A DNA stretch of 17,891 bases. Origin: Tieghemiomyces parasiticus (lineage: Eukaryota; Kickxellomycota; Dimargaritomycetes; Dimargaritales; Dimargaritaceae). How positions within the stretch are numbered: position 1 is the stretch's first letter; each line of letters begins with the position of its first letter. Positions 1,954-16,900 of the stretch are shown here, piece after piece. The notes under the pieces are model-generated. The model saw only the letters and a list, made by a program, of their open reading frames with translations, had not been told where the DNA came from and ran no database searches. The position numbers were made by a program, and so were the translations under genes. The stretch lies in assembly GCA_027575765.1 (NCBI GenBank), contig JANBPT010000959.1:1-17891 (forward strand). The letters run 5' to 3'.

Positions 1954-4900
1954 ATGCTGGCTGTCCTCGATCCTAATCCTCCCGCCTCTGCTGACAATGT
2001 GGACGGTCCTCCTCCGACTACTGCCGTTCCCCTGGTCAAGCCCGTTCACCCTGAGCCGGGTTACGGCCAGGTTTCGGCGGGGACTCCACTGTCAACCAAC
2101 CTCCACCCCGACAGACTCTGCAAGGTGGCCTGGGGCATCCTCCTGTCCCGCTACACCGGTGCTGAGCAGGTTGTTTTCGGCCATATCCAGGCCCCGTCGC
2201 CGCCGCTGGACCCTACACTAGCGGCCAGTTATCTCACCGTATGTGGCCTGCGCCTTGACCCCGGTGTCAAGCTTACCTCAGCCCTTGGACATCCGACCTC
2301 CTCTTCCGATCACCCTTTGCATCATCAGGAGTGGCCGGTACAGGCTAGTCACCAGGGGCAACTCAACACCGTCCTAGTTAGCTACGCCAACCTTTTGTCT
2401 ATTCAGTCTCGGGAGCGTAGCCCATCGGATTTGGACACCAACAACCAGTCTACAGTCAGAGTCGAAAAGGACTCCCTTACTATGTTGGCGACGATGACTC
2501 GGGCCATCCTCGTCCTCTCCTGGCAGGTGGCCACGGGTAGTCTAGAGGTCCGTCTGGCCTTTGACCGCACCCAGGTGGCCGAGGCAGCGGTGCAGGAACT
2601 CGGACGCCAATTCAGTATCGTGGTCCGTGCATTGGCCGAGGTGATGTTGCACCCCAAACAGCTCGCACACTTAACCATCGCCGATGTGGCCTGGGTAGAT
2701 GGGATTGAGCGCCAACGCCTCCTGCAGTTCGCCGGCACCATCAGCCACCCTGACGCAGTCAATACCCCGGTCCACCTCCTAGTCGGTGAATGGGCGAGTA
2801 GGACCCCTGACGGTATCGCTCTGGACCACGAGGGCCGCACCGTCACCTACACCGAGTTTGACCGGATGACCTCGGCCCTGGCCCAGATGCTTACCCGCGA
2901 CCAAGGAGTCCGGCCCGAGGTTCGTATCGCCCTCCTCCTGCCCAAGTCCATCGAGTTTTTTATAGCCCTGTTTGCTGTGCTCAAGTCCGGCGCCGCCTAC
3001 GTGCCCATTGATCCCGAGTATCCCGAAGAACGGGTCCGCTACATTATCGAGGACAGCAAAGCTACTCTGGTCCTGGCAAGCTCTGTGACCCAGGGTCGTC
3101 TGGGAAACATCGCTTGCCCCAAACTGCTGGTTAGCAATGTGGCCGAGGCTCTACCAAGCACCGAAGACAACGATTGCCCGTTCATTCCTCACCACTCTGG
3201 ACCCAAGGACCTGGCCTATATCGTGTACACCTCGGGCACTACTGGACAGCCCAAGGGCGTCATGGTCGAGCACGGCAGTTTGGTATCGTTAACTGTGGAT
3301 CCCATAGTCGACTGCTACTACGGGTCAGGCCAGCGTGATCTCTTAGTCATGTCTGTCTGCTTCGATGGTATGTTGTGGCCCACCATGAAAACCCTATCCA
3401 GGGGTGGAACTCTGGTCCTCCCTGGCCCAGACCTACTCAGCGACCTTTCGAGTGTCCACACTGCCAGTGTCACGCCGTCATTTCTGGCCAAGTTGCACCC
3501 TGAGCAGTTCCCACTGCTTCGCGGCATCTTCTGCGGTGGAGAGCCCTGTAGTCAACGGTTGGTCAGCACGTGGAGTCCGCATTGCAGCGTTAATAATGGC
3601 TACGGCCCCACCGAGACCACTGTGATCAGCTTCGCCACAGCCCTTCACGTGGACGATATAATAACCGTAGGTCGGCCCCTGCGCAACGTCCTGGCCTACA
3701 TTGTCGATGACGATCTGCACATGGTCCCCGTGGGTGCCCCCGGCCAGCTCCTCATCGGCGGTTTGGGTGTGGCCCGCGGTTACTGCAACCGACCGGACCT
3801 CACCGCCCAGAGGTTCATCGCCAACCCCTTTGGCCCCGGTCGCGTGTTCCAGACCGGTGACCGAGCCCGTTGGCTAACTAATGGCCAGGTCGATATTTTG
3901 GGTCGCATGGACCACCAGGTCAAACTCCATGGGTTCCGTATCGAGCTCGAGGAGATCGAGGCCGTCGCAAGCAGTTTTCCTGCTGTTCAGCTCGCTGTGG
4001 CTTCCGTGCAAAACAATTGTCTAGCCCTGTTTGTGGAGCCCCAGTCGGTGGACACCGTGGCCTTGCTGGATCACCTCCGTAGTCGCTTGGCCAGGTTTAT
4101 GATCCCCGACCACGTTGTTCCCGTGGCTTGTCTCCCGCTAACTGCCAACGGCAAAGTCGACCGTAGGGCCCTCCCTGAAATCTCGACGCCCCTAGCTAAT
4201 CCCACCCACACTGTTCCCCAGGGCTTTACTACTTTGGAGCTCCGCCTACGTGAGGCCTGGGCCCTGATTTTGCAGCTCCCTGGTGACCGCATTGGGACAA
4301 CCGACGACTTCTTTCGTATTGGTGGCGACTCCATCTCGGCCATCCTGCTCGTATCCAAATGCCGCCAGCTCGGGTATAAGGCCACCGTGCCGCTAATCTA
4401 CGAATGTCGCCAGCTCCGCGCCTTGGCCGCCCGACTGACCCCATTGGCTACGGTCGCTTCCGAGGAAAATCAGCACCAGGTCCAGGGCTGTGTCGACCAG
4501 ACCCCGATTCAGCGCTGGTTCCTCGGTTTGTCGTTCCGCAGCCCTCACCACTTCAACCAGTCCTTCACCCTGCGTGTGGATCCGTCGGTTACCCTCGAGC
4601 AGATTAGCCACGCTCTAGTCCAACTGGCCAACCACCATGACATCCTGCGTGCTCGGTTCCATCTAAACTATGAGGGCGCTTGGAGGCAGTACATCCCAAC
4701 TACCGAAGCCATCCCCAGCCACATCCCTGTGACCGAGGCCACCGTGAACGAGGTGGACTATGCCGACTTCATTTTGAAGGTCCAGTCCAGCCTGCACCTC
4801 ACGGACGGCCCTGTCATGGCAGCCTGCCTGATCCACACTGGCGCCGAGTCCGAGCCAGCCCGTCTGTTCTGGACCATCCACCACGCCCTGGTTGATCTGG

Positions 4901-7900
4901 TCTCCTGGCGCGTCCTGATCGAGGACCTGCAGACCCTGCTCACCGGGGGTCAGCTGCCGCCCAAGACCCTGTCCTTCCAGACCTGGTGCAGCCAGTTGGA
5001 CGACTACGCCCGGACCCTCACTGCCGATGCCTGGCCCGTGCAGAGCATGACGGTGGATAACCGCCAACTCCTGCCACCCCCAGAGGTCCTGGACCCAGTG
5101 CCCACCGCGGCCCGCCTGTCCATATCCCACGAATTCGACCGGGAGTTAACCACCCGGCTCCTGCTGCAACTGGCGCCACAATGGCGTGTCACCCCACGGG
5201 ACATGCTCCTGGCCACCTTTGCCCGGGCCTACTGCCAGGCATTGGGTACCACCCAGGTTTCCTTTGTTATGGAGGGCCACGGTCGGGAGCCCTGGTCTGA
5301 CGCCATGGATGTGAGTCGCACCGTAGGCTGGTTCACCGCCTTGTACCCCTTGGTTCTGGACGTACCCCTGGGCAGTTCGATCCTAGCCACTCTGCATCAC
5401 ACCAAGGAGGCGATGCAGCAGATCCCGGTGCGTGGTTTCCCCTACAGCTTACTCCGCCACATGCCGGGGGCGGACATAACTGAGCGGGCCAAGCTCCTGG
5501 CCAAAACCCCCGAGCGCCTCGACGTCCAGTTCAACTACTTTGGTCGGTTCGGCAATGCGGACACGAGTAGCAAGGGCAGTGGTGCGGTTAGTATCGAGTG
5601 GGATGACCGCTTCGGCCTGCACGACTTTTCCCCCGACGAACACGTCATCTTCGACATCAACCCCATGCCCCTCGTCAACCAGGACCGCCTGCGCCTGGTC
5701 ATGGAGTACAATCCGCGGGTATATGGGACCCAATTAGCAGAAGAGCTGATCGACCTGTGGCGCCAAGACCTCGAGCACCTGGCCGCCATTCCGCCGGCTT
5801 CCGTCCAGCCGCTTCTCACTCGATTCGATGCGCCGCTACTCCAGCCCACCGCCCAGGAATTCGACATCCTTCTGGCTGACCTGGAGGAACGCGGCATTGC
5901 TGCTTCCGACGTAGAGGCTATCCTGCCCTGTACCCCCATGCAGGGCGGTCTGCTCGTTGCTACGCTGCAGGACCCCTCGGCCTACCTGGTTCAAGCAGCG
6001 GTGAGTTTCTCCGGTAATGTAGATCTCGACAGGCTCCAGCAAGCTTGGGTGAACTTACTTCAGCGCCACAGCGTCCTGCGCACGGTCTTCATTCCGACCG
6101 TCGCACCGCGTGGCAACGGACTTGCTCAGGTCGTTCTACACCGCGCACCGCTGGCCTGGAGCCTAGCCGAGGCACCCCTTCCTTCCCTGACGGACTTTTT
6201 CAACGCGAACCGTGCCCTGGGCTTCGACATGACCAGGCCCATGGTCCGGGTTGACGTGTTTCCCACCGAGCGTTCCAACGAGTACCTGCTAGTCCTGGCC
6301 ATCCACCACGCCCTGATCGACGGCTGGTCGATCCCGCTCCTGCTACGTGACCTAGGCGAGCTCTACGCCTCTCCGGACATGCCAGGCCAACTGGCCTCAC
6401 CTTCATTCAACACCGTGGTCGAACAGGTGGCCAATCAGGACCAAGACGAGGCACGTGCGTTCTGGGTTGAGTATTTACGGAGTGTTCAGCCCACGCCAGC
6501 ACCCATGCTTAGTACGGAGCTCACGGGCGAACATGGCTTTTCCGACTATCACTGTACCCTTGACGTCGATAAGTCACGCTTACACAATGCCGCCCAGCAA
6601 TTCGGCGTGACCCTCTCGATCCTCCTCAAGGCTGCCTACGCCCTCGTCTTGGCCCAGTACCTGGACCGGGACGACCTCGTCATTGGCTTTGTGGTGTCAG
6701 GTCGTAACCTGGACGTGGCGGATATTGACACCGTCGTCGGTCCCTGCCTCAACACCGTCCCGTTGCGCTTCCGCCTGAGTAAGCAACCCATCGGCCAATG
6801 GCTCCAGCAGCTCCAGGCCGACGCCACCGGGATGATCCCCTTCGAGCACACCAGTCTTTCCAAGGTCAAGGCCTGGTGCAGTCCAATCCTGGCCTCCCCT
6901 CTATTTCATGTGCTCGTTGGCTTCGAGAACTTCCCCCAGGGGTCACACCAGGCCGGTAACATGGACGTAAAACTGGTACGGGTGCACGAGTTTACCGAGT
7001 ACCCGCTCACCCTGGATTTCGTCGAGGGGCCGCATGCTGTCGGCGTCAAGTGCTTCTACGGGCGCATGTTTTGCAGTGAGGCCAACATTATTCAACTGGT
7101 ACAGCAGGTCAGCTCCGTGCTGGTCAAGATCACAAAAGCGACTGCGGACACCACGATCAGCCAGGTCTCCCATTCGTTTCCTGACCCGACCCAGAACTGC
7201 CCTGGGCGGCTTATCACGGTGGACGGTGTCCAGCTGCCTCTCGTTGTCCTAGACCACTACCTGGCCAAACAAGGACTGCCTGCGCCCTATTCCGTCAGCA
7301 TCCACGGCGGTCGCATCGTAACTCGAATCTCTGCACCCGAGACTACGTGTGAGTCGTTCCGACCTCTGTTGGCCGGTGTGAACCTCCCTGCCGACCTTGT
7401 GCCTGCCGCTTTTATCTCACTTGAGGCTTACCCGCATTTGTCCAGCACCAGTGAGGGTGACGTTGCTCGGCTAGGTGAGGCATACCTTCATGTGTTGGAC
7501 ACAGAGAACCAGGGGTCGTCCTTAGACACAGTGGGTAGGTGGCTCGCCGTGATCTGTACCGACCTGCTCCTGGGAACCGGGGATGGGATGCCTGATGGTG
7601 AAAATATCTGGGTGTCTGTACTGACTAGACCCACCCTGTTCTTCGAGCTGGAGCACCGCATCAACCAACGTTTCGGGGTCACTCTTGAAACGCGGAACTT
7701 CCTGGCCTGCGATGATTTGGCCGCCTTGACGCTGGTGATCAAACGTTCCAGCCCTTCGCTATCGCCTATCCGTACGCCAGAAGGCCAATCGAACAAGCCC
7801 AAGTCTGAGTTGATCCGCCCGATGAAAGCGACACCCTACCAGGCCCAGGTGTGGCTTGCCTGTCAACTCTCGGAGGACCCTGGTCAGTTCTACCACCAAG

Positions 7901-10900
7901 CCAAGCTCAGCATTCCCCACCAGCTTACCCATTCGGACGTCCAGTGGGTCCTCGACCAGTTCCTAAGCCAAGTGGACTGGCTGCGCAACGTGGTCCGTAA
8001 GGAGGAAGGCCAACTTGTAGCCTATCTACTTTCTCCGAAGCGTCTGTCCTCAGCTACCCAGTCCACCGCCGGTTCCCAGTCCCTGCGTAGGGATGGCCTC
8101 GAAGCAGCTGGTAAGGTCCTGGTCAGCACGGATATGTTGGCCGTTCTCTACCAGCCGGAACCACCCCGTCTGGTGGTCCGTATGCACCAGATCTTGGCAC
8201 CTGAGATGTTATTCCATCTCCTTACCGAGGAGCTGCAGCTGGCCTTCAGAGCGAAACATGACGGTCAGGTGTTCGACATTAGCCCCTCGCTCGCCATGGG
8301 ACACACAGCCACCGTCGGTCGCCTTCCATCAGATAAGTCGATCCGTGCTTACTGGACGGAGACAATGGCCGAAGCCTCTGCAGATCTGAAACTACCGCTC
8401 GACCGTCCTCGCGCCCGTGTGCCCACGTTTAGTTCGGCCTGCCTTCGGTTAGGCCTGGACCAGGGAGTTATCAACGGATTATCCTGCCCCACTGAAGGGA
8501 ACCCTGTCGCACCGCTTAGGCATTGGACGGCCATGGTGGGGTCCTATCTCGCAAGGATCTGTGGTACTGACAATGTCCTGGTCGATGTGCTACTTAACCA
8601 CGGCGTATGTCGTAGAGAAACGTATACTGTTTCCCTAGGTCACCTGGCTTGTCCGGTGCGAGTCCCAGGTGCCGCAAGTGCGTCCAGTCTAGATGACCTT
8701 AGCACTGCCCTTTCGCAACAGCTGCAGCGCTCCGTGGACCACTTGACCCCAGACTACGACCCATACGCTGGTCTTCCCCGCGCGCCGGCCCACCCGCTCC
8801 GGCATCCAGTCCGTGTGGGTATCGCAGTCGACCCTGTTGAATGGGATGCTGAAGCCCGGTCCTACCCTGCCCTCTGGCATGATATCATATTCCGAATCAG
8901 TCTTTCCAGTCCCAGCCCCGGCATGACCCTCCAGTACAACCAGGACCTTTTCGATTCGGCCACCATCGAGCGCCTGGGGGCCAACCTGCTCTACTACTGT
9001 CAAGTCGCCCTCACCTGCTCCCCACCTCTGACCACGGTCCCTTTGGTATGTCCGACGGAGGAGCAAATCCTACTAGAGGACTTTGGCCGGAGCCCCAGCG
9101 AGTACGACCCTTCTGATTCCAGCACCAGTGTCATCAGCTTAATCTGTGACAGCGTCCAGCGCAGTCCTCACACGGTGGCCCTCGAGTCCCAGCTCGAGAC
9201 TGTGAGTTATACTGAAATGGACGCCCGAGTCAAGAGTCTGGCTCGGGCCCTTCAGCACCGTGGCATCGGAGTGCAGGACCGGGTGGCAGTAATCGTAGAG
9301 GGCCGTCCAGCCATCGCCATGGCAATGTTGGCCCTCTGGCTACTCCGGGCCATCTATGTACCCGTGGACTGTACCCTACCCGAGCAGCGCCAGCGCTACA
9401 TGGTTAAGACCGCCCAATGCACGGTCGTCCTGAATATGACTGAAACCGGGGTGACCTGGACGGAGGCCCTACCAGGCCTGAAACTCCTAAACTCTGAGCT
9501 AGACTCTGGTTCTACCCTCTCCCCTTACTGCCATCACCCTGAAGACCTGGCATACATTCTATTTACTTCGGGCACCACGGGTCAGCCCAAGGGCGTCACA
9601 ATCCGCCATGCCAGCCTGACTAACCTGCTCCTGGCACCAGAGACTACGCTCTGTCCGGAACCTGGGACACGCTACTTGCAGACCATGGCCGTTGGCTTCG
9701 ACGTGTTCATACTGGTGGCCCTGTCCCCGCTCTGCACGTCTTCGACGCTGGTATTCAGCGACGGCGACATCCCCGCCGCTCTACATACCGTCGACGGCGT
9801 CTTCCTAACCCCTTCCGTCTTGGGCTCCCTAAGCCCTACGATCTACCCTAACCTACGCCGGGTCATGAGCGCGGGCGAGGCACTGCCGACTGAACTGGCA
9901 GCCAAGTGGCTCCCATACTGCGAGGTACAGAACCTCTACGGCCCCACCGAGGTCACTGTCATTAGCCATACCCTGACGGCCCAGCTTGCCAAACCCATCA
10001 CCATTGGCCGGCCCATCGCCGGTAGCGAATGCTACATCGTTAACCAGCACGATCAGCTCGTGCCCATCGGCAGTGTCGGCGAGATTTGCGTGGGTGGCCT
10101 GGGTGTCAGTGCGGGCTACGTCAACCGGCCTGATCTCAACGAGGAGAAGTTTGTCAGCCTGCCCTATTCATCCGGTCCTGTGTACCGCACCGGCGATCTC
10201 GGCCGCTGGCTGCCTACCGGCGAGGTGGAGTGTCTGGGCCGCCGTGACGACCAGGTCAAGCTGCGCGGATTCCGTATCGAACTGGCCGAGGTGCGTGGGG
10301 CCCTCCTCAATATACCGGGTGTACAAGACACCCATATCCTCATCCACGAACGAACCCTGGTGGCTTTTGTATGCCCTAACCAGCTCGATACGGCATCTGT
10401 CAAATCGGCCCTGCAGGAGGTCCTGCCGGGTTATATGGTACCCAGCCATATCATGGGCCTCAACCATATCCCTCTAACGACCAACGGCAAGGTCGACCGG
10501 CGGGCCCTAGTTGCCTTATTCCTAAAGTACCAGGCGTCATTCCTAGATATGGGTGCTGCGGTAGTGGGTGAGCATGTAATGACACCCGAGGCGCAGGTGC
10601 TTTGGACCGCAGTGGTCGGGACGTTAGGTCTAGCTCACACTCCGATTACCGACAACCTCCCTTTCTTCAGGCTCGGCGGCGATTCGATCTCGGCCATCCA
10701 GGTCTCAGCGCGGTGTCGACAGTTAGGCTATCGTCTCCCAGTTCCCATGCTCCTTAAGAGTCAGCCTCTGTCCACGGCGGCGACCGCAATGGAACGCCTT
10801 GTCCAGTCCACGACTTCCGAGTTGGCACCTATTCCTTACGGAGTTTCGTTCCCTTTGACCTCGATCCAGCGCTGGTTCTTTGCCCAGGGGTTCCGTAACC

Positions 10901-13900
10901 TCAGCCACTTCAACCAGTCTTTCTTGCTCGAGCTCACCCGCCCCGTCTCCCGTGGCACGCTAAGCAAGACCCTGCTCAGCCTGGTCAATCACCACGCGGT
11001 GCTGCGCAGTCAGTATCGCCGTGACCCCACTGAACAATGGTCCCAAACCATTCCGCCTCCCTTTTCCACCCTGTCCAGTCAGGTCCACGAGGTCACCTGT
11101 GTCGAATCCGAGCTATCCCAATGCTGCTACCAAGTGCAGCAGTCCGTTGACATTCACCAGGGCCACAACGTCGCCGCTGCACTGGTTCATCTGGGTGCTC
11201 CTAAAGACAACCGTCGTTTATCACACACTCTGCTCTTCCTGACCATACACCACCTGGTCGTGGACCTCGTGTCCTGGTCCATCCTCCTGGAAGACCTGAC
11301 TTCACTGCTAGACGGCCTTACACCCCTGCCACCCTCCTTGCCCTTCGCCAACTGGGCCTCGGAGCTCGACCGGTGGCGTCGGGAGCGAAGTGTAGCCCAC
11401 TTGGACCCAGAGCCCGAGGTGGTCTGCCCATTGTCACTCTCGCTATGTCCACTGACAGCACTACCGGCCAACATGGCTGGGAATGAGGTCAGCCACACCG
11501 TTCAGATTCCAACCGATGTTACTGAGGCACTTATCCAGGTCGCCGGGGATTCATTCCACCTCGACGAGCTCCTCCTGGCCGCCCTCTGTGGGGCGTTGGC
11601 CGTGGTGACCCACTCTCCCACGACCACGGTGCATACGGAATCCCACGGCCGCCACCCCTGGTACGAGGGCATGGATCTGAGTCGCACAGTGGGCTGGTTT
11701 ACCACTATCCTGCCCATCACAGTGACCAATACTCCGTCGGCTAGTTTGAGCGAACGTCTCTGCCAAATTAAGCACACCCGGCGGAGTCTACGGCACCACG
11801 GCCTAGAAACCGACTGGCCGAAGGCACCACTCGATCTAAGCCATCAGACGACTGCCGCCTACCACCCTATGGAGGTCGTGTTTAACTTCCTAGGACGCAC
11901 GACCGATGACCGTGCCCTCACCTGCCATGGGAAGGCGCCCTGGGTCGTCCGCCACGACCTCCTCCCTCTAATCCCCACCGGTGGTGGTGAGGAGCTGCGC
12001 CCGCAGGTACTGGAGGTCCTCGGATGGCAAACCAGTACCGGCCTAGAACTAACAGTCAACTACTGCCCGCAGGTCGTCCCAACGGCTACCGTGGCGGCCC
12101 TGGGCGACGAGGTACGCAAGTATTTGGCTGAAATAGCGACCCTGAACCTTGCTACTCTGTGGGTGCCGTCAGACTTCCCTTTGCTCGAGGCCAATCAGGG
12201 TGACATGGCCAAGATCGTCGCCGATCTCCCCACCCTGGGACTGACCGTCGCCGAGGTGCAGAATTTTTACCCCATGACGCCCATGCAGCAGGGACTCTGG
12301 ACGGCCACCGCCAAGGACCCCACCGAATACCTTCTCCAGTTTGCCATGACCATCAACGGTGTCAGCGACAATGACGTCCTCCTCCACGCCCTCGAGGCAG
12401 TCGTTGCCCGCCACTCCATCCTGCGCACCGTCTTCCTAACCTCCTTCAGCAACGCCCGGAGTAATGGCATCCAGGTGGTGTCACGGCGGCCTCGATTCGG
12501 CTGGCGAGCAATTGGGTGCTGGTCAGAGGTTGGCGTACAGGACGAGGAGGACTACCTACGTAGCGACAAGGCCCTGGGCTTCACCCCGGATCAACCGCTA
12601 CTCCGCTACTGTGTTGCACCGGCCACCCAGGCTAGCACTCGCTTGATCATGACGATTCACCACGCGCTGATCGATGGGTGGTCGTTTGGCATCTTTACAC
12701 AGGAGCTGCGCCACTTCCTCTCGTCTGGTCCGTCGGCCAGTTTATCTCCCGCGGTAGAATTTTCCGCTTACGTGGAGCACATCGGCAACCTGGATGATAC
12801 GGAGGCACGGACCGTTTGGGAGGACTACTTGCGAGGTATCGGGCAACCAACGACGCTGCTTTTGCCGAAGGAGCCGACAGCATCACTAATTAAGACCGAG
12901 TACCATATTGTGATCCACGATGATGCGACCCACCTCCAGACTTTGGTTAAAGACCACGGGTTGACCGTGTACACCCTTCTCAAGGCCGCCTGGGCCTACC
13001 TCCTCCACCGCTACACCGGCCTATCCGACATCGTGTTCGGCAATACTGTGTCGGGTCGTGCCCTGGACTTGCCCGGTGTCGACGGTGTCGTAGGTTGCCT
13101 GATCAACACCGCACCATGTCGTGTAACGATAGGAGCAGATATGGAACTTAAGGGCTTTCTCCAGGGCATCAATGCGCAAAGCCAACGATTGGTCGCCGTG
13201 GAGCACTGCCATCTTGCTGATCTGAACTGCTGGGTGGAGGGCGACCTTCGAGTCACTGACATGTTCAACACGATGCTGGTCTATGAAAACTACCCCAATA
13301 CTGGCATGGTCAGCGACGATCAAGCAGTCACGTTTTCAGACCTCAAGGCAGTCGAATCTACGGAGTATGCGCTAACGGTGATCAACCAAGTTGAGCATGG
13401 CCAGCTGACAGCCATTCTTAACTGGAGCACGAGTGACTTTGCCGAGCCCTACATTGAGGCTCTAGGTGGACACTTACGGTCTATTATAAATCAGATGGCG
13501 GATATTCTCCCGCAGCACAGCGGTTCGTCTAGTCTGGCTGACCTGGACCTACTCTCCCCAGCTGAGCTCCAGAGCTTAACCGTTAACATGGCGCGCCCTA
13601 CTAAGCCTATCGACTTTGACACTTGTATTCCCGGGCTGTTCACTAAGCAAGCTGAACAAACCCCTGACCACCCCGCCGTCGAGTACAATGACCCCCCCTC
13701 GGGTACCATCAGCTGGACCTACCGGGAACTCCTGGAGAAGTCCAGGGTCATCGCCCGCCACCTCCTCTCCCAGGAAGTCCAGCGAGAAGAGCCGGTTGGC
13801 CTACTCATAGACCGTCTGCCTAGTACGGCCGCCGCAATGTTGGGCGTACACTTAGCAGGTGCTTCATTTGTGCCTTTAGATGCTAACCTTCCCCTCGACC

Positions 13901-16900
13901 GTCTGCAGTTCATTGCCCGTGACTGCGGAATCCAACGTATCCTGTACAATATTGGCGACGTGGAAAAGGTGGAAGCCATTCGCCATGGCACAGGGGTGGC
14001 CACGGACTCTCTCGACACCTTACTGATCAACGACAGCAGTGAATCGACGGACCTTGGACTTCCCATCGTCCAGCCCACCGACTTGTCCCATATCCTCTAC
14101 ACGTCTGGAACAACAGGGCAACCTAAGGGTGTCCAACTGGAACATCGTGTCATGGCCAACTTCGTCCAGCAGTCACCGGAAGTCATTGTCATCCGATCGG
14201 GAATGCGAGTGATGCAGAATATGGCCCTCACCTTCGACTGCTGCCTAGTTGAGATCCTGACCACCGTGTGCAACGGTTCTACGGTCGTGCTACGTAACGA
14301 CCTCCTGGACACGTTGCCCAAGGTCGACGTCCTAATGGCCACGCCCTCCGTCCTGGCGACTCTCGACCCGACCAAGTATCCCAACCTTCGCCATGTAATT
14401 ACCGCTGGGGAGGCCTTACCTCGTCCTCTTGCCGAGCGCTGGTCAAGCCACTGTCCCATCACCAACATGTACGGCCCCACAGAGTGTTTACTAAGCCACA
14501 CCGTGCAGTTCACCCCTGGAGGCCCTGTCACCATCGGCCACCCCATTCCCAACACTGAGTGCTACATCCTGGACCACAAGCTACGCCCTGTACCGGTCGG
14601 CGTACCTGGAGAGATTTACGTCGGCGGTATCTGCGTCACCCGCGGCTATGTGAACCGCCCCGATCTTAATTCTAAGGCCCTTCTACCCAATCCGTACACC
14701 GGAAGAGGTTACCTGTACCGTACGGGCGATGTGGGCCGCTGGCTCCTGGACGGGACGGTGGAGTACTTTGCCCGCAGTGACGATCAGGTCAAGGTCCGCG
14801 GCCATCGCGTGGAGCCTCAGGAGATTGAGGCTGTCCTGGGCCAGTGCTTAGAGGTCAGCTCAGTCGCAGTGGTTTTTTCATCTGGTAAGCTGTATGCGTT
14901 TGTTTGTCCCGACACTATTACTCCATCGAGCCTGAGGGCGCACGCGGTGGCCCACCTTCCACCATACATGGTGCCTAGTGCCTTCTTCCTGCTAACTGAA
15001 CTTCCGCGGAACGCGAACGGCAAGACCGACAAGCGCCGACTGCTTGGCCTCCTGCCCTCTTTTATCAGCCAAGCGTGCGACCGTGCGGTGACTGCGCCGG
15101 AGAACGAGGCGCAGCTCCTAATCGTCGACATCATGGCCCAGGTTCTAAACATGTCAGCATCCCAGATCGATATTCACGACTCCTTCTTCCAACTGGGTGG
15201 TGACTCCATCTCGGCCATCCGGCTCTCCTCCCTGTGCCGTGACCATGGCATCCATGTCAGTATCGCGCAGATATTCCAGTACGGCACCCCTGCGGCGCTT
15301 GCTGGTATCATAGACTTTGATAGCTCGCCCTCGACCACGATGGCCTACCAGCCGTTTGAACTCGTTGCTTCCTCTGGGGTGGCTATTGAGGATCTGACAG
15401 CTGAGGTTGCGACAAGTTTGGGTGTCGGGACTGAAACCATCGAGGATATCTTGCCCGTGTCCAGCCTGCAGCAGGGGTTTCTCGTCAGCACTCTCAAAGA
15501 CCCCAGCGCCTACATGGTGCAGACGGTCTACGACCTGACGGGCCCGCTTGACGTGGCCAAACTGCACCAAAGCTGGTCGCAGGTCGTCCGATCCCACCAG
15601 ATCCTGCGTACCAAGTTCCTTGTCCCCACCGACCAGTCGCAGCACGCCTTCCTCCAGGTGGTACTCCGTGACACTGATTTCGAGTGGACCTACCATGACC
15701 AGCCCCTGACAGGCCTTGACCAGGCCGAACACCACCACCTTGTCTCCGACCGGGCGCGCGGCTTCACCCTGACTGGTCCGTTGATTCGCTTTGCCGTCTA
15801 CCGCGGTCCGGCTGATCGTCACCTGTTCTGCACCACGTTCCACCACGCCTTGCTCGACGCTTGGTCGGAGAGTACTGTTATGGCCGAATCCCTGGAGTAT
15901 TACCACGGCGTGAAGACCCAGCCACGGCCCCAGTACCATGAATTTATCCAACATCTGACCCGCATTGACCAGGAAGGCATGGCAGCTTTCTGGAGAGATA
16001 ACCTGGATGGAGTCAAGATGCACCCCACCATCCAGTTCCCCAGAGAATCCAACGCCACGCCAACTGAGCACGGTGAGATTCGTCACCCCGTGTCCACCAG
16101 CCTCCTCGCCACCAAACAGTTCTGCCGTGGGATGGGGCTGACCGTGAACTCCCTACTTCGCGCCGTCTGGGCCCTAACCTTAGCGCGGTACCTTGGCGAG
16201 AATGAGGAGGTTACGTTGGGTGTGCTCGTGTCGGGTCGCAACGTGCCCGTCCCTGGCATCGCAGGTATGGTGGGTATGTGCATTAATACTCTACCCCTAC
16301 GCGTGAGAGTTGACCGCAACCATACCATCACCGATTTCCTCCGTCAAGTCTATGCTGACTCGGGGGCTCTTACCGCGTACGAGCAATGTAGTCTAGTCGA
16401 TATCAAGCGGTGGGCTAAGTTGGATGCCGATAGTGACCTGTTCACCTCCCTCCTAGTCTACGACAACTACGAGACCACGACCTCCGCCTGTACCGACCAG
16501 ATCAACTACGTCCCTCGTTCCGGACAGAACTTTACAGAGTATGCGTACACTGCCAATTTCTTCGATCAGGATGATACGTTAATGCTGAATTTGAGTTACC
16601 AGACCCGATACTGCAACCCGAGCTACGCCCACTACCTAGTCCACTTCATCGACCATTGCTTAACTGCCATTGTCTCTGGCCATACTGAACAACTTGGTAA
16701 CATCCTGACCCTGCCTGCAGCAGAGCAGGCGCTGATCCGCCAGTGGTCCGACGGCATCACCATCGACTTCCCGCAGAAGGACTGGCTGGCCCACCAGTTC
16801 TTCACCCAGCATTTGGCCACCCGTGCTGACGCCATTGCCCTGGAGTCCGCCACCGACCAGTTCACCTACGCCGAGGTGTACCACCGGGCCTGCGCCATTG

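What the first reader, a model, noticed from the sequence alone, without database searches (positions are those of the whole stretch)
7207..9012. A decayed internal module sits inside a working assembly line
Between the intact C2 and intact A2 lie about 665 residues that read as a dead module: an A domain reduced to its small subdomain, a carrier without its Ser, and a C domain without its His and Asp. The frame stays open, so it is translated and tolerated. This looks like module loss caught part-way, with the synthetase probably shortened by one residue without losing the protein segment. The alternative is a non-catalytic scaffold, for example a platform recruiting another protein.
Basis: partly seen in the sequence, partly recalled or inferred. 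Interest (0 to 1): 0.85.

Follow-up and report, generated by a model that had tools for sequence, protein, structure and literature searches.

The report
Ancient dead module kept by selection
A giant fungal peptide-making enzyme carries a whole catalytically dead module in its middle, and many sister enzymes in the same fungus and in a related genus keep the same dead module, so it is an old retained part and not a module caught in the act of being lost.

Summary
In detail: between intact C2 and A2, residues 1755-2395 (window 7216-9138) are an A small subdomain, a carrier with Pro at the Ser site, and a C domain reading HQxxxPE for HHxxxDG. 'Caught part-way' does not hold. The genome (Tieghemiomyces parasiticus, Dimargaritales) has 36 matches, 27 near full length. 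In 26 of 26 aligned copies carrier and C motifs are lost. Five of five Dimargaris cristalligena proteins examined have the dead module in the same slot with a dead A core still attached; one D. xerosporica protein lacks it. Dead modules form one clade (100/100). Four Tieghemiomyces copies keep the dead A core; the others lost it at the hinge. dN/dS of the segment is 0.24-0.51 in six groups: below 1, but above C2 where C2 could be measured in full. Six other synthetases begin inside this dead C and keep only its C-lobe and linker before A. Best reading: an exapted, non-catalytic C-A platform for A2, the line being one residue shorter than its module remnants. Platform role and product length are inferred. 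Inert ballast is the main rival.

The parts
1954..17889 (+). NRPS open frame, 5312 aa, 3' open at the contig end
2014..2778 (+). N-terminal half-C remnant (residues 21-275) directly before A1
   Evidence: weak Pfam Condensation match, E 0.078,
2779..4233 (+). A1
4228..4443 (+). T1, GGDS at residue 790
4480..5808 (+). E1 (epimerization-type, HHALVDL at residue 976)
   Evidence: the assignment to E rather than C is by motif, recalled
5869..7143 (+). C2, intact (HHALIDG at residue 1451)
7216..9138 (+). Dead module remnant (residues 1755-2395): A_sub, T, C and C-A linker, without catalytic motifs
7216..7503 (+). A small subdomain remnant, starting at the A-domain hinge (residues 1755-1850)
   Evidence: no Pfam AMP-binding_C match
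7531..7758 (+). Dead carrier (residues 1860-1935)
7630..7632 (+). Pro1893 at the phosphopantetheine Ser site (Pro in 25 of 26 aligned copies, Ser without GG in one)
7819..9003 (+). Dead C domain (residues 1956-2350)
8185..8205 (+). HQILAPE in place of HHxxxDG (residues 2078-2084)
9004..9138 (+). C-A linker of the dead C into A2, the most conserved block of the segment
9139..10548 (+). A2, intact motifs
10588..10818 (+). T2, GGDS at residue 2908

Best explanation
A complete extra module (A-T-C) between C2 and A2 was inactivated in, or before, the common ancestor of Dimargaris and Tieghemiomyces and has been kept since as a non-catalytic structural part. SHOWN: it is homologous to A_sub-T-C, its catalytic motifs are lost in all aligned copies of both genera, the copies form one clade, they sit in one slot, and missense change is resisted. 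In most Tieghemiomyces copies the A core was later cut out at the A_core/A_sub hinge. INFERRED: the dead C with its C-terminal linker serves as the C-A platform on which A2 is mounted, so A2 cannot simply be left without it. Peptide bond formation is done by the intact C2, which takes the T1-bound residue as donor and the T2-bound residue as acceptor across the inert insert. C2-[dead A_sub-T-C]-A2-T2 therefore works as one composite module, and the product has one residue fewer than the number of module remnants.
For: 27 near-full copies among 36 matches in the genome. Of 15 Tieghemiomyces proteins annotated (all picked by a match to the segment), 13 have it after a C domain, 2 after the N-terminal half-C, and all 13 that extend far enough run from it straight into A2. 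A search with C2 instead of the segment listed 13 T. parasiticus proteins and all 13 carry it. Five of five D. cristalligena proteins have C2, dead A core, dead A_sub-T-C, A2; Basidiobolus P0177 and Spizellomyces P0176 have none. One clade, 100/100, against 12 active fungal and 9 bacterial stretches. Segment dN/dS 0.403, 0.505, 0.494, 0.427, 0.243, 0.242 in six groups, bootstrap upper bounds 0.33-0.73. The C-A linker is the most conserved block (11 of 45 columns against 66 of 641 overall; p 0.0036, uncorrected) and the C N-lobe, where catalysis would sit, the least conserved of the domains (8 of 170). Six of six other synthetases start at the C-lobe of this dead C and keep C-lobe plus linker directly before an A domain. 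Module 1 also starts with a half-C right before A1. Model of the segment: pLDDT 78.2, pTM 0.81.
Against: Segment dN/dS exceeds that of C2 (0.21-0.28) in the three groups with full C2, so constraint is relaxed; the dead carrier shows no clear constraint in some groups (1.37, interval 0.46-5.9, in C489/C1330/C627; 0.73, interval 0.30-3.6, in C962/C818). Some constraint could come merely from having to fold without harm. The contact of dead C and A2 was not modelled: the job with A2 failed (pLDDT 38.5). One D. xerosporica protein lacks the element. The six short starters could be passive 5' truncations. A_sub is also above average in conservation in the clade-wise count (15 of 96, p 0.02), which a role of the C-lobe alone does not explain. 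There are no product, expression or activity data here.
Confidence: 0.57

Rival explanations
1. Inert ballast: the dead module has no positive role. It stays because precise in-frame excision is rare and misfolding is harmful, so only fold-breaking changes are removed; it is slowly trimmed in steps, as the first reader proposed but over a long time.
For: Segment dN/dS is higher than that of C2 in the three groups with full C2. A trimming series in one genome: A core kept in C604, C1169, C490, C485; gone elsewhere; front gone in C753 and C675; only the C-lobe left in six. The dead A core shows dN/dS 0.52-0.59 between C490 and the other two, and 1.28 on 18 changes between C604 and C1169.
Against: The A_sub-T-C part is retained in all 13 T. 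parasiticus proteins listed by the search with C2 and in a second genus, although deletions evidently happen here (A core lost, fronts lost). Conservation peaks at the A2 side, and Pro1893 is kept in 25 of 26 copies that are as little as 28% alike.
Confidence: 0.28
2. Recruitment or dimerization platform: the dead C binds another protein (as the X domain recruits P450s) or a second synthetase copy (as the inactive C1 of VibF does).
Against: Conservation is highest in the C-A linker, not in the lobes; the six short starters dispense with the N-lobe. No open frame of 100 aa or more lies in the window outside the synthetase's span, but a partner could be encoded anywhere.
Confidence: 0.12
3. The HQxxxP C domain still catalyses, and shares the condensation work with C2.
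For: One C domain with HQxxxDM is described as active (ORF18; passage in PMC11546977). Gln is kept in 23 of 26 copies.
Against: The Asp is lost in 25 of 26 copies, the second His site is Pro in three and the first His is Leu in two; D. cristalligena has Asp or Glu at the second His; the carrier has no usable Ser; C2 upstream is intact.
Confidence: 0.03

Closest known systems
Ferrichrome synthetases with degenerate A domain (dA) or lost A domains (S. pombe sib1, NPS2 and SidC lineages; passages of PMC2644324)
   Same: Fungal NRPS in which an A domain is degenerate or lost while the neighbouring domains stay in frame, with lineage-wise domain loss.
   Different: That paper links the loss of domains or modules to iterative mechanisms; here T and C are dead as well, the remnant starts at the A hinge, and it is present in 27 near-full copies in one genome.
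VibF inactive C1 (cited in a passage of PMC8795117; original paper not seen)
   Same: A catalytically inactive C domain retained inside a working NRPS with a structural property.
   Different: A single domain, not a whole dead module; its property is dimerization, untested here.
Glycopeptide X domain (passage in PMC11546977)
   Same: C fold with an altered HHxxxDG motif and a recruitment role.
   Different: It recruits P450s and sits near the release end (recalled); the present one sits between C2 and A2 and no partner is known.
[quoted passage not shown] its likeness to a C domain is recalled; paper not held)
   Same: A remnant directly before an A domain, as with the half-C here and in the six short starters.
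   Different: Located at the N-terminus only, not an internal module.
Module skipping with an inactive carrier (myxochromide; recalled, no call)
   Same: The line bypasses a module whose carrier cannot be loaded.
   Different: There the A domain is present; here the A core is gone or dead and the C is dead too.

Membership tests
Functional NRPS elongation module (C-A-T) | Carrier Ser in a GGxS motif | tested here: not met
   Pro in 25 of 26, Ser without GG in one; no GG[DH]S in the window segment, in six further segments or in C1169, C490 and C485
Functional NRPS elongation module (C-A-T) | A core with TSGTTGxPK and related motifs | tested here: not met
   A core absent in the window; 0 of 4 T. 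parasiticus copies that keep a core have A3, A7 or A10 motifs in the stretch read, nor do the five Dimargaris segments
Functional NRPS elongation module (C-A-T) | HHxxxDG in C | tested here: not met
   HQxxxPE in the window; second His lost in 26 of 26
NRPS A_sub-T-C homologue (vestigial module) | Collinear homology and fold | tested here: met
   hhalign over 613 columns, prob 99.3; AF2 pLDDT 78.2; Foldseek LgrA E 2.4e-18, TM 0.49 on the query, rmsd 25 A because the domains are differently arranged. VIA tests residues 193-641, mainly C; A_sub and T are barely tested there. The MSA held bacterial rows, so the fold is not independent of the homology.
Ordinary pseudogene or decay in progress | dN/dS near 1, lineage-private lesions | tested here: not met
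   0.24-0.51 for the segment in six groups; lesions shared. The carrier alone is compatible with 1 in some groups.
X domain / recruitment C | Binds a tailoring enzyme in trans | not testable with these tools
   fold match only, close to other C domains
VibF-type inactive C | Dimerizes the synthetase | not testable with these tools
   needs purified protein
Ferrichrome synthetase with degenerate A | Siderophore synthetase of the NPS2 or SidC lineage | not tested
   no tree with that family was built
Composite module with C-A platform role (this proposal) | Dead C contacts A2 as in canonical C-A platforms | tested here: inconclusive
   model with A2 failed; linker conservation is indirect

The most novel reading that the evidence does not exclude
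A whole NRPS module has been exapted into a selected, non-catalytic structural element. It merges two modules into one composite module, has been kept across two genera in dozens of synthetases, and is being reduced stepwise to the minimal part that an A domain needs in front of it (C-lobe plus linker), with the A core lost at the hinge, probably twice. This would be a natural route for shortening assembly lines and a natural rule for where NRPSs may be cut.
Probability: 0.45. Interest if true: 0.78.

Novelty: new variant of a known kind. Interest (0 to 1): 0.62.

Why it matters
Degenerate single domains in NRPSs are known, but here a whole dead module is a fixed, old, multi-copy feature with intermediate states preserved side by side in one genome. 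It gives a natural experiment on how assembly lines lose residues without losing protein, on what an A domain needs in front of it, and on cut points for engineering. It also warns that module counts taken from domain annotation may overpredict peptide length in Dimargaritales.

Tried and rejected
Recent private decay: rejected, because lesions are shared by 26 of 26 aligned copies and by another genus. Unrelated fold: rejected. Intact version of the module at this place: none seen in the searches of the genome with the segment and with the dead A core, in the 17 Tieghemiomyces proteins annotated (15, picked by the segment; P0172 and P0207) or in six Dimargaris proteins; of these six the D. 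xerosporica protein P0173 lacks the element altogether. First structure job, segment plus A2 with nine similar rows: useless (pLDDT 38.5, even for the intact A2). One or two losses of the A core: unresolved on the first tree (AU p 0.146); the second tree, rooted with Dimargaris among the rows, favours two, since C47/C811 branch first and the rest hold together at 94/85, but C47/C811 sit on a long branch. N-terminal half-C against the dead C by hhalign: no significant match (E 0.16), so the two remnants are not shown to be the same. Rfam: nothing in the window. NCBIfam: one generic NRPS match to the segment, E 7.9e-06, far below its cut-off. Element in other organisms: the two protein searches with the segment gave only T. 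parasiticus and ordinary NRPS modules at 20-35% identity; Dimargaris was not listed there and came up only through C2, so those two searches do not show absence elsewhere. Literature: ten searches; none of the listed titles and abstract openings described such a dead module in Dimargaritales; the lists were capped and most subscription papers are not held. P0093 (8,712-base contig) holds part of a further close copy that I could not match to a row.
Full report
WHAT WAS CLAIMED AND WHAT IS THERE. The window is one contig of a 46.5 Mb, 1363-contig assembly. Paralogous proteins on contigs of the same length are named Tieghemiomyces parasiticus in NCBI (P0002, 41,963 bases; P0004, 143,121 bases), so the organism is taken to be this fungus (Dimargaritales, Kickxellomycotina). 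The frame 1954-17889 is open throughout. Its order is half-C, A1, T1, E1, C2, segment, A2, T2, E2, C3, A3, T3, C4, A4. The segment, residues 1755-2395, matches Pfam Condensation at 7.4e-11 and PP-binding only weakly. Eleven copies as a profile align collinearly with A_sub-T-C of a bacterial NRPS over 613 columns; the same profile finds solved NRPS structures, mostly through the C part (best E 1.8e-25). The catalytic motifs present three or four times each elsewhere in the protein are absent from it.

IT IS NOT ALONE. A search of the assembly with the segment gave 36 matches, a lower bound: 27 cover all or most of it, two are cut short (C1302 at a contig end; C556, whose frame closes after the carrier), six match only about its last 260 residues, and one is a short weak hit. 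Fourteen copies including the window are 83-92% alike over the segment; the rest go down to 28% to the window. In 26 aligned copies the Ser site is Pro in 25 and Ser in one (C1330, without the GG); the second His is Gln in 23 and Pro in three; the Asp is Pro in 23, Thr in two, Asp in one; the first His is kept in 24. C490, the 27th, entered the tree with 458 residues and is not in these counts; the piece of it read has no GG[DH]S and only the intact HH motif of C2. In the 15 proteins annotated, which were picked by the segment, 13 have it right after a C domain and two (P0094, P0095) after the N-terminal half-C; 13 run straight into A2 and two end inside the segment. As a check that does not start from the segment, a search with C2 listed 13 T. 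parasiticus proteins among its best 120, and all 13 carry the segment.

IT IS OLD. The same search with C2 brought up six Dimargaris proteins. Five from D. cristalligena (two sets of records, so some may be one locus in two strains) have half-C (weak, 17-26 bits), A1, T1, E1 (P0174 lacks a scored E1), C2, then a dead A core, then the dead A_sub-T-C (163-288 bits for the best stretch to the Tieghemiomyces profile), then A2. They too lack TSGTTGxPK, GG[DH]S and HHxxxD[GLS] in that stretch; the second His is Asp or Glu, and two (P0174, P0215) keep an Asp at the motif's Asp. Several of these gene models have gaps that may be false introns. One D. xerosporica protein, one Basidiobolus and one Spizellomyces protein lack the element. 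In a tree of 40 rows the 14 Tieghemiomyces and five Dimargaris dead stretches form one clade (100/100) apart from 12 active fungal and nine bacterial stretches. Identity between genera is 25-28% for the dead module and 39-49% for A1, C2 and A2 (window and P0207 against five D. cristalligena proteins). The exact replacing residues differ between the genera, so shared inactivation before the split is the simplest reading, but parallel inactivation of an already failing module is not excluded. Dimargaritales are reported to be rich in secondary-metabolite genes (passages of PMC10386755), and D. cristalligena to have 21 NRPS and 7 NRPS-like proteins (passage of PMC7466969).

STAGES OF TRIMMING. 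Four Tieghemiomyces copies still have the A core (C604, C1169, C490, C485), without A3, A7 or A10 motifs; it scores as AMP-binding at 3e-09 in C604 and at 0.0036, under the cut-off, in C485. The other near-full copies have lost it, with the join at the hinge where A_sub begins. In the tree with Dimargaris, C47/C811 (core lost) branch before the core-keeping copies (the rest hold together at 94/85), which implies two losses; the earlier test could not reject one loss (p 0.146), and C47/C811 are on a long branch. C753 and C675 lack A1 to C2: the half-C is joined to the dead module. Six further synthetases (C554, C1, C459, C1069, C478, C297) have their first Met 2-23 codons after the preceding stop, begin to match at profile positions 358-376, that is at the C-lobe of the dead C, and run directly into an A domain, 6 of 6.

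SELECTION. By codon counts (NG86, bootstrap over codons) the segment's dN/dS is 0.403 (0.344-0.472) in the 14 close copies, and 0.505 (0.353-0.696), 0.494 (0.348-0.726), 0.427 (0.317-0.582), 0.243 (0.144-0.397) and 0.242 (0.172-0.331) in five further groups; C2 is 0.249, 0.277 and 0.214 in the three groups where it was measured in full, and A2 0.201, 0.181 and 0.244 there. In the other three groups only about 85-108 codons of the flanks were at hand: A2 gave 0.324, 0.360 and 0.072, so in C604/C1169 the segment is not above its flank. Missense change is thus resisted, about half as strongly as in C2. The carrier is the weakest part (0.17 to 1.37; the highest has an interval of 0.46-5.9). The dead A core gives 0.52-0.59 in two pairs and 1.28 in a third with 18 changes. 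The groups are sets of paralogues; pairs such as C604/C1169 (98% alike in the A core) may be alleles or very recent copies. Gene conversion was not modelled.

WHERE IT IS CONSERVED. Of 641 positions 66 are identical in at least 25 of 26 copies. They are concentrated in the C-A linker (11 of 45, p 0.0036) and sparse in the N-lobe of C (8 of 170, p 0.0048); two short inter-domain linkers have none. With one copy per clade the figures are 11 of 45 (p 0.0012) and 8 of 170 (p 0.02), and A_sub is above average too (15 of 96, p 0.02). The p values are uncorrected for seven blocks. The pattern points mainly to the side facing A2.

MECHANISM. Shown: a module without catalytic motifs, in one slot, of one origin, constrained. 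Inferred: C2 is the working condensation domain of a composite module C2-[dead]-A2-T2; the dead C is kept because A2 is built on a C-lobe-linker platform. The N-terminal half-C before A1 and the six short starters, which keep just that part, fit this. Inert ballast is the main rival; a dimerization or recruitment platform is possible. Inactive C-fold domains with such properties are known (VibF; [quoted passage not shown]

NOVELTY. Degenerate and lost A domains are known in ferrichrome synthetases (PMC2644324, passages). A whole dead module fixed across two genera and dozens of paralogues was not described in the titles and abstract openings listed by ten searches of the held papers, which miss most subscription journals. 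I file it as a new variant of a known kind.

Noticed in passing
window about 9391-10833 (residues about 2480-2960): Synonymous divergence among the 14 close copies jumps from about 0.17 to 0.36-1.13 across A2 and T2 and falls back to 0.16 in E2, and two A2 pocket types (GFDVFILV, GFDGFILT) occur: A2-T2 blocks appear to be exchanged between synthetases while the dead module stays with the backbone.
   Followed up: partly
window 2014-2778: The synthetase starts with a half-C remnant directly before A1; it is found in 14 of 15 proteins and weakly in five D. cristalligena proteins. It is not shown to be the same remnant as the dead C.
   Followed up: partly
L026 (C1330): One copy has Ser again at the dead carrier's site (Lys-Ser instead of Lys-Pro) without the GG motif.
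   Followed up: no
L050 (C556): A broken synthetase: the frame closes after the dead carrier, and neither a dead-C nor an A match was found in the next 2 kb.
   Followed up: partly
whole assembly: At least 77 condensation-domain matches (77 of 283 candidates were scored), many in frames of 5000-9000 residues: a very large NRPS expansion in this fungus.
   Followed up: no
P0010 (contig C962): This relative lacks E1 between T1 and C2, so loss of the epimerase also occurs in this family; P0174 of D. cristalligena lacks a scored E1 too.
   Followed up: no
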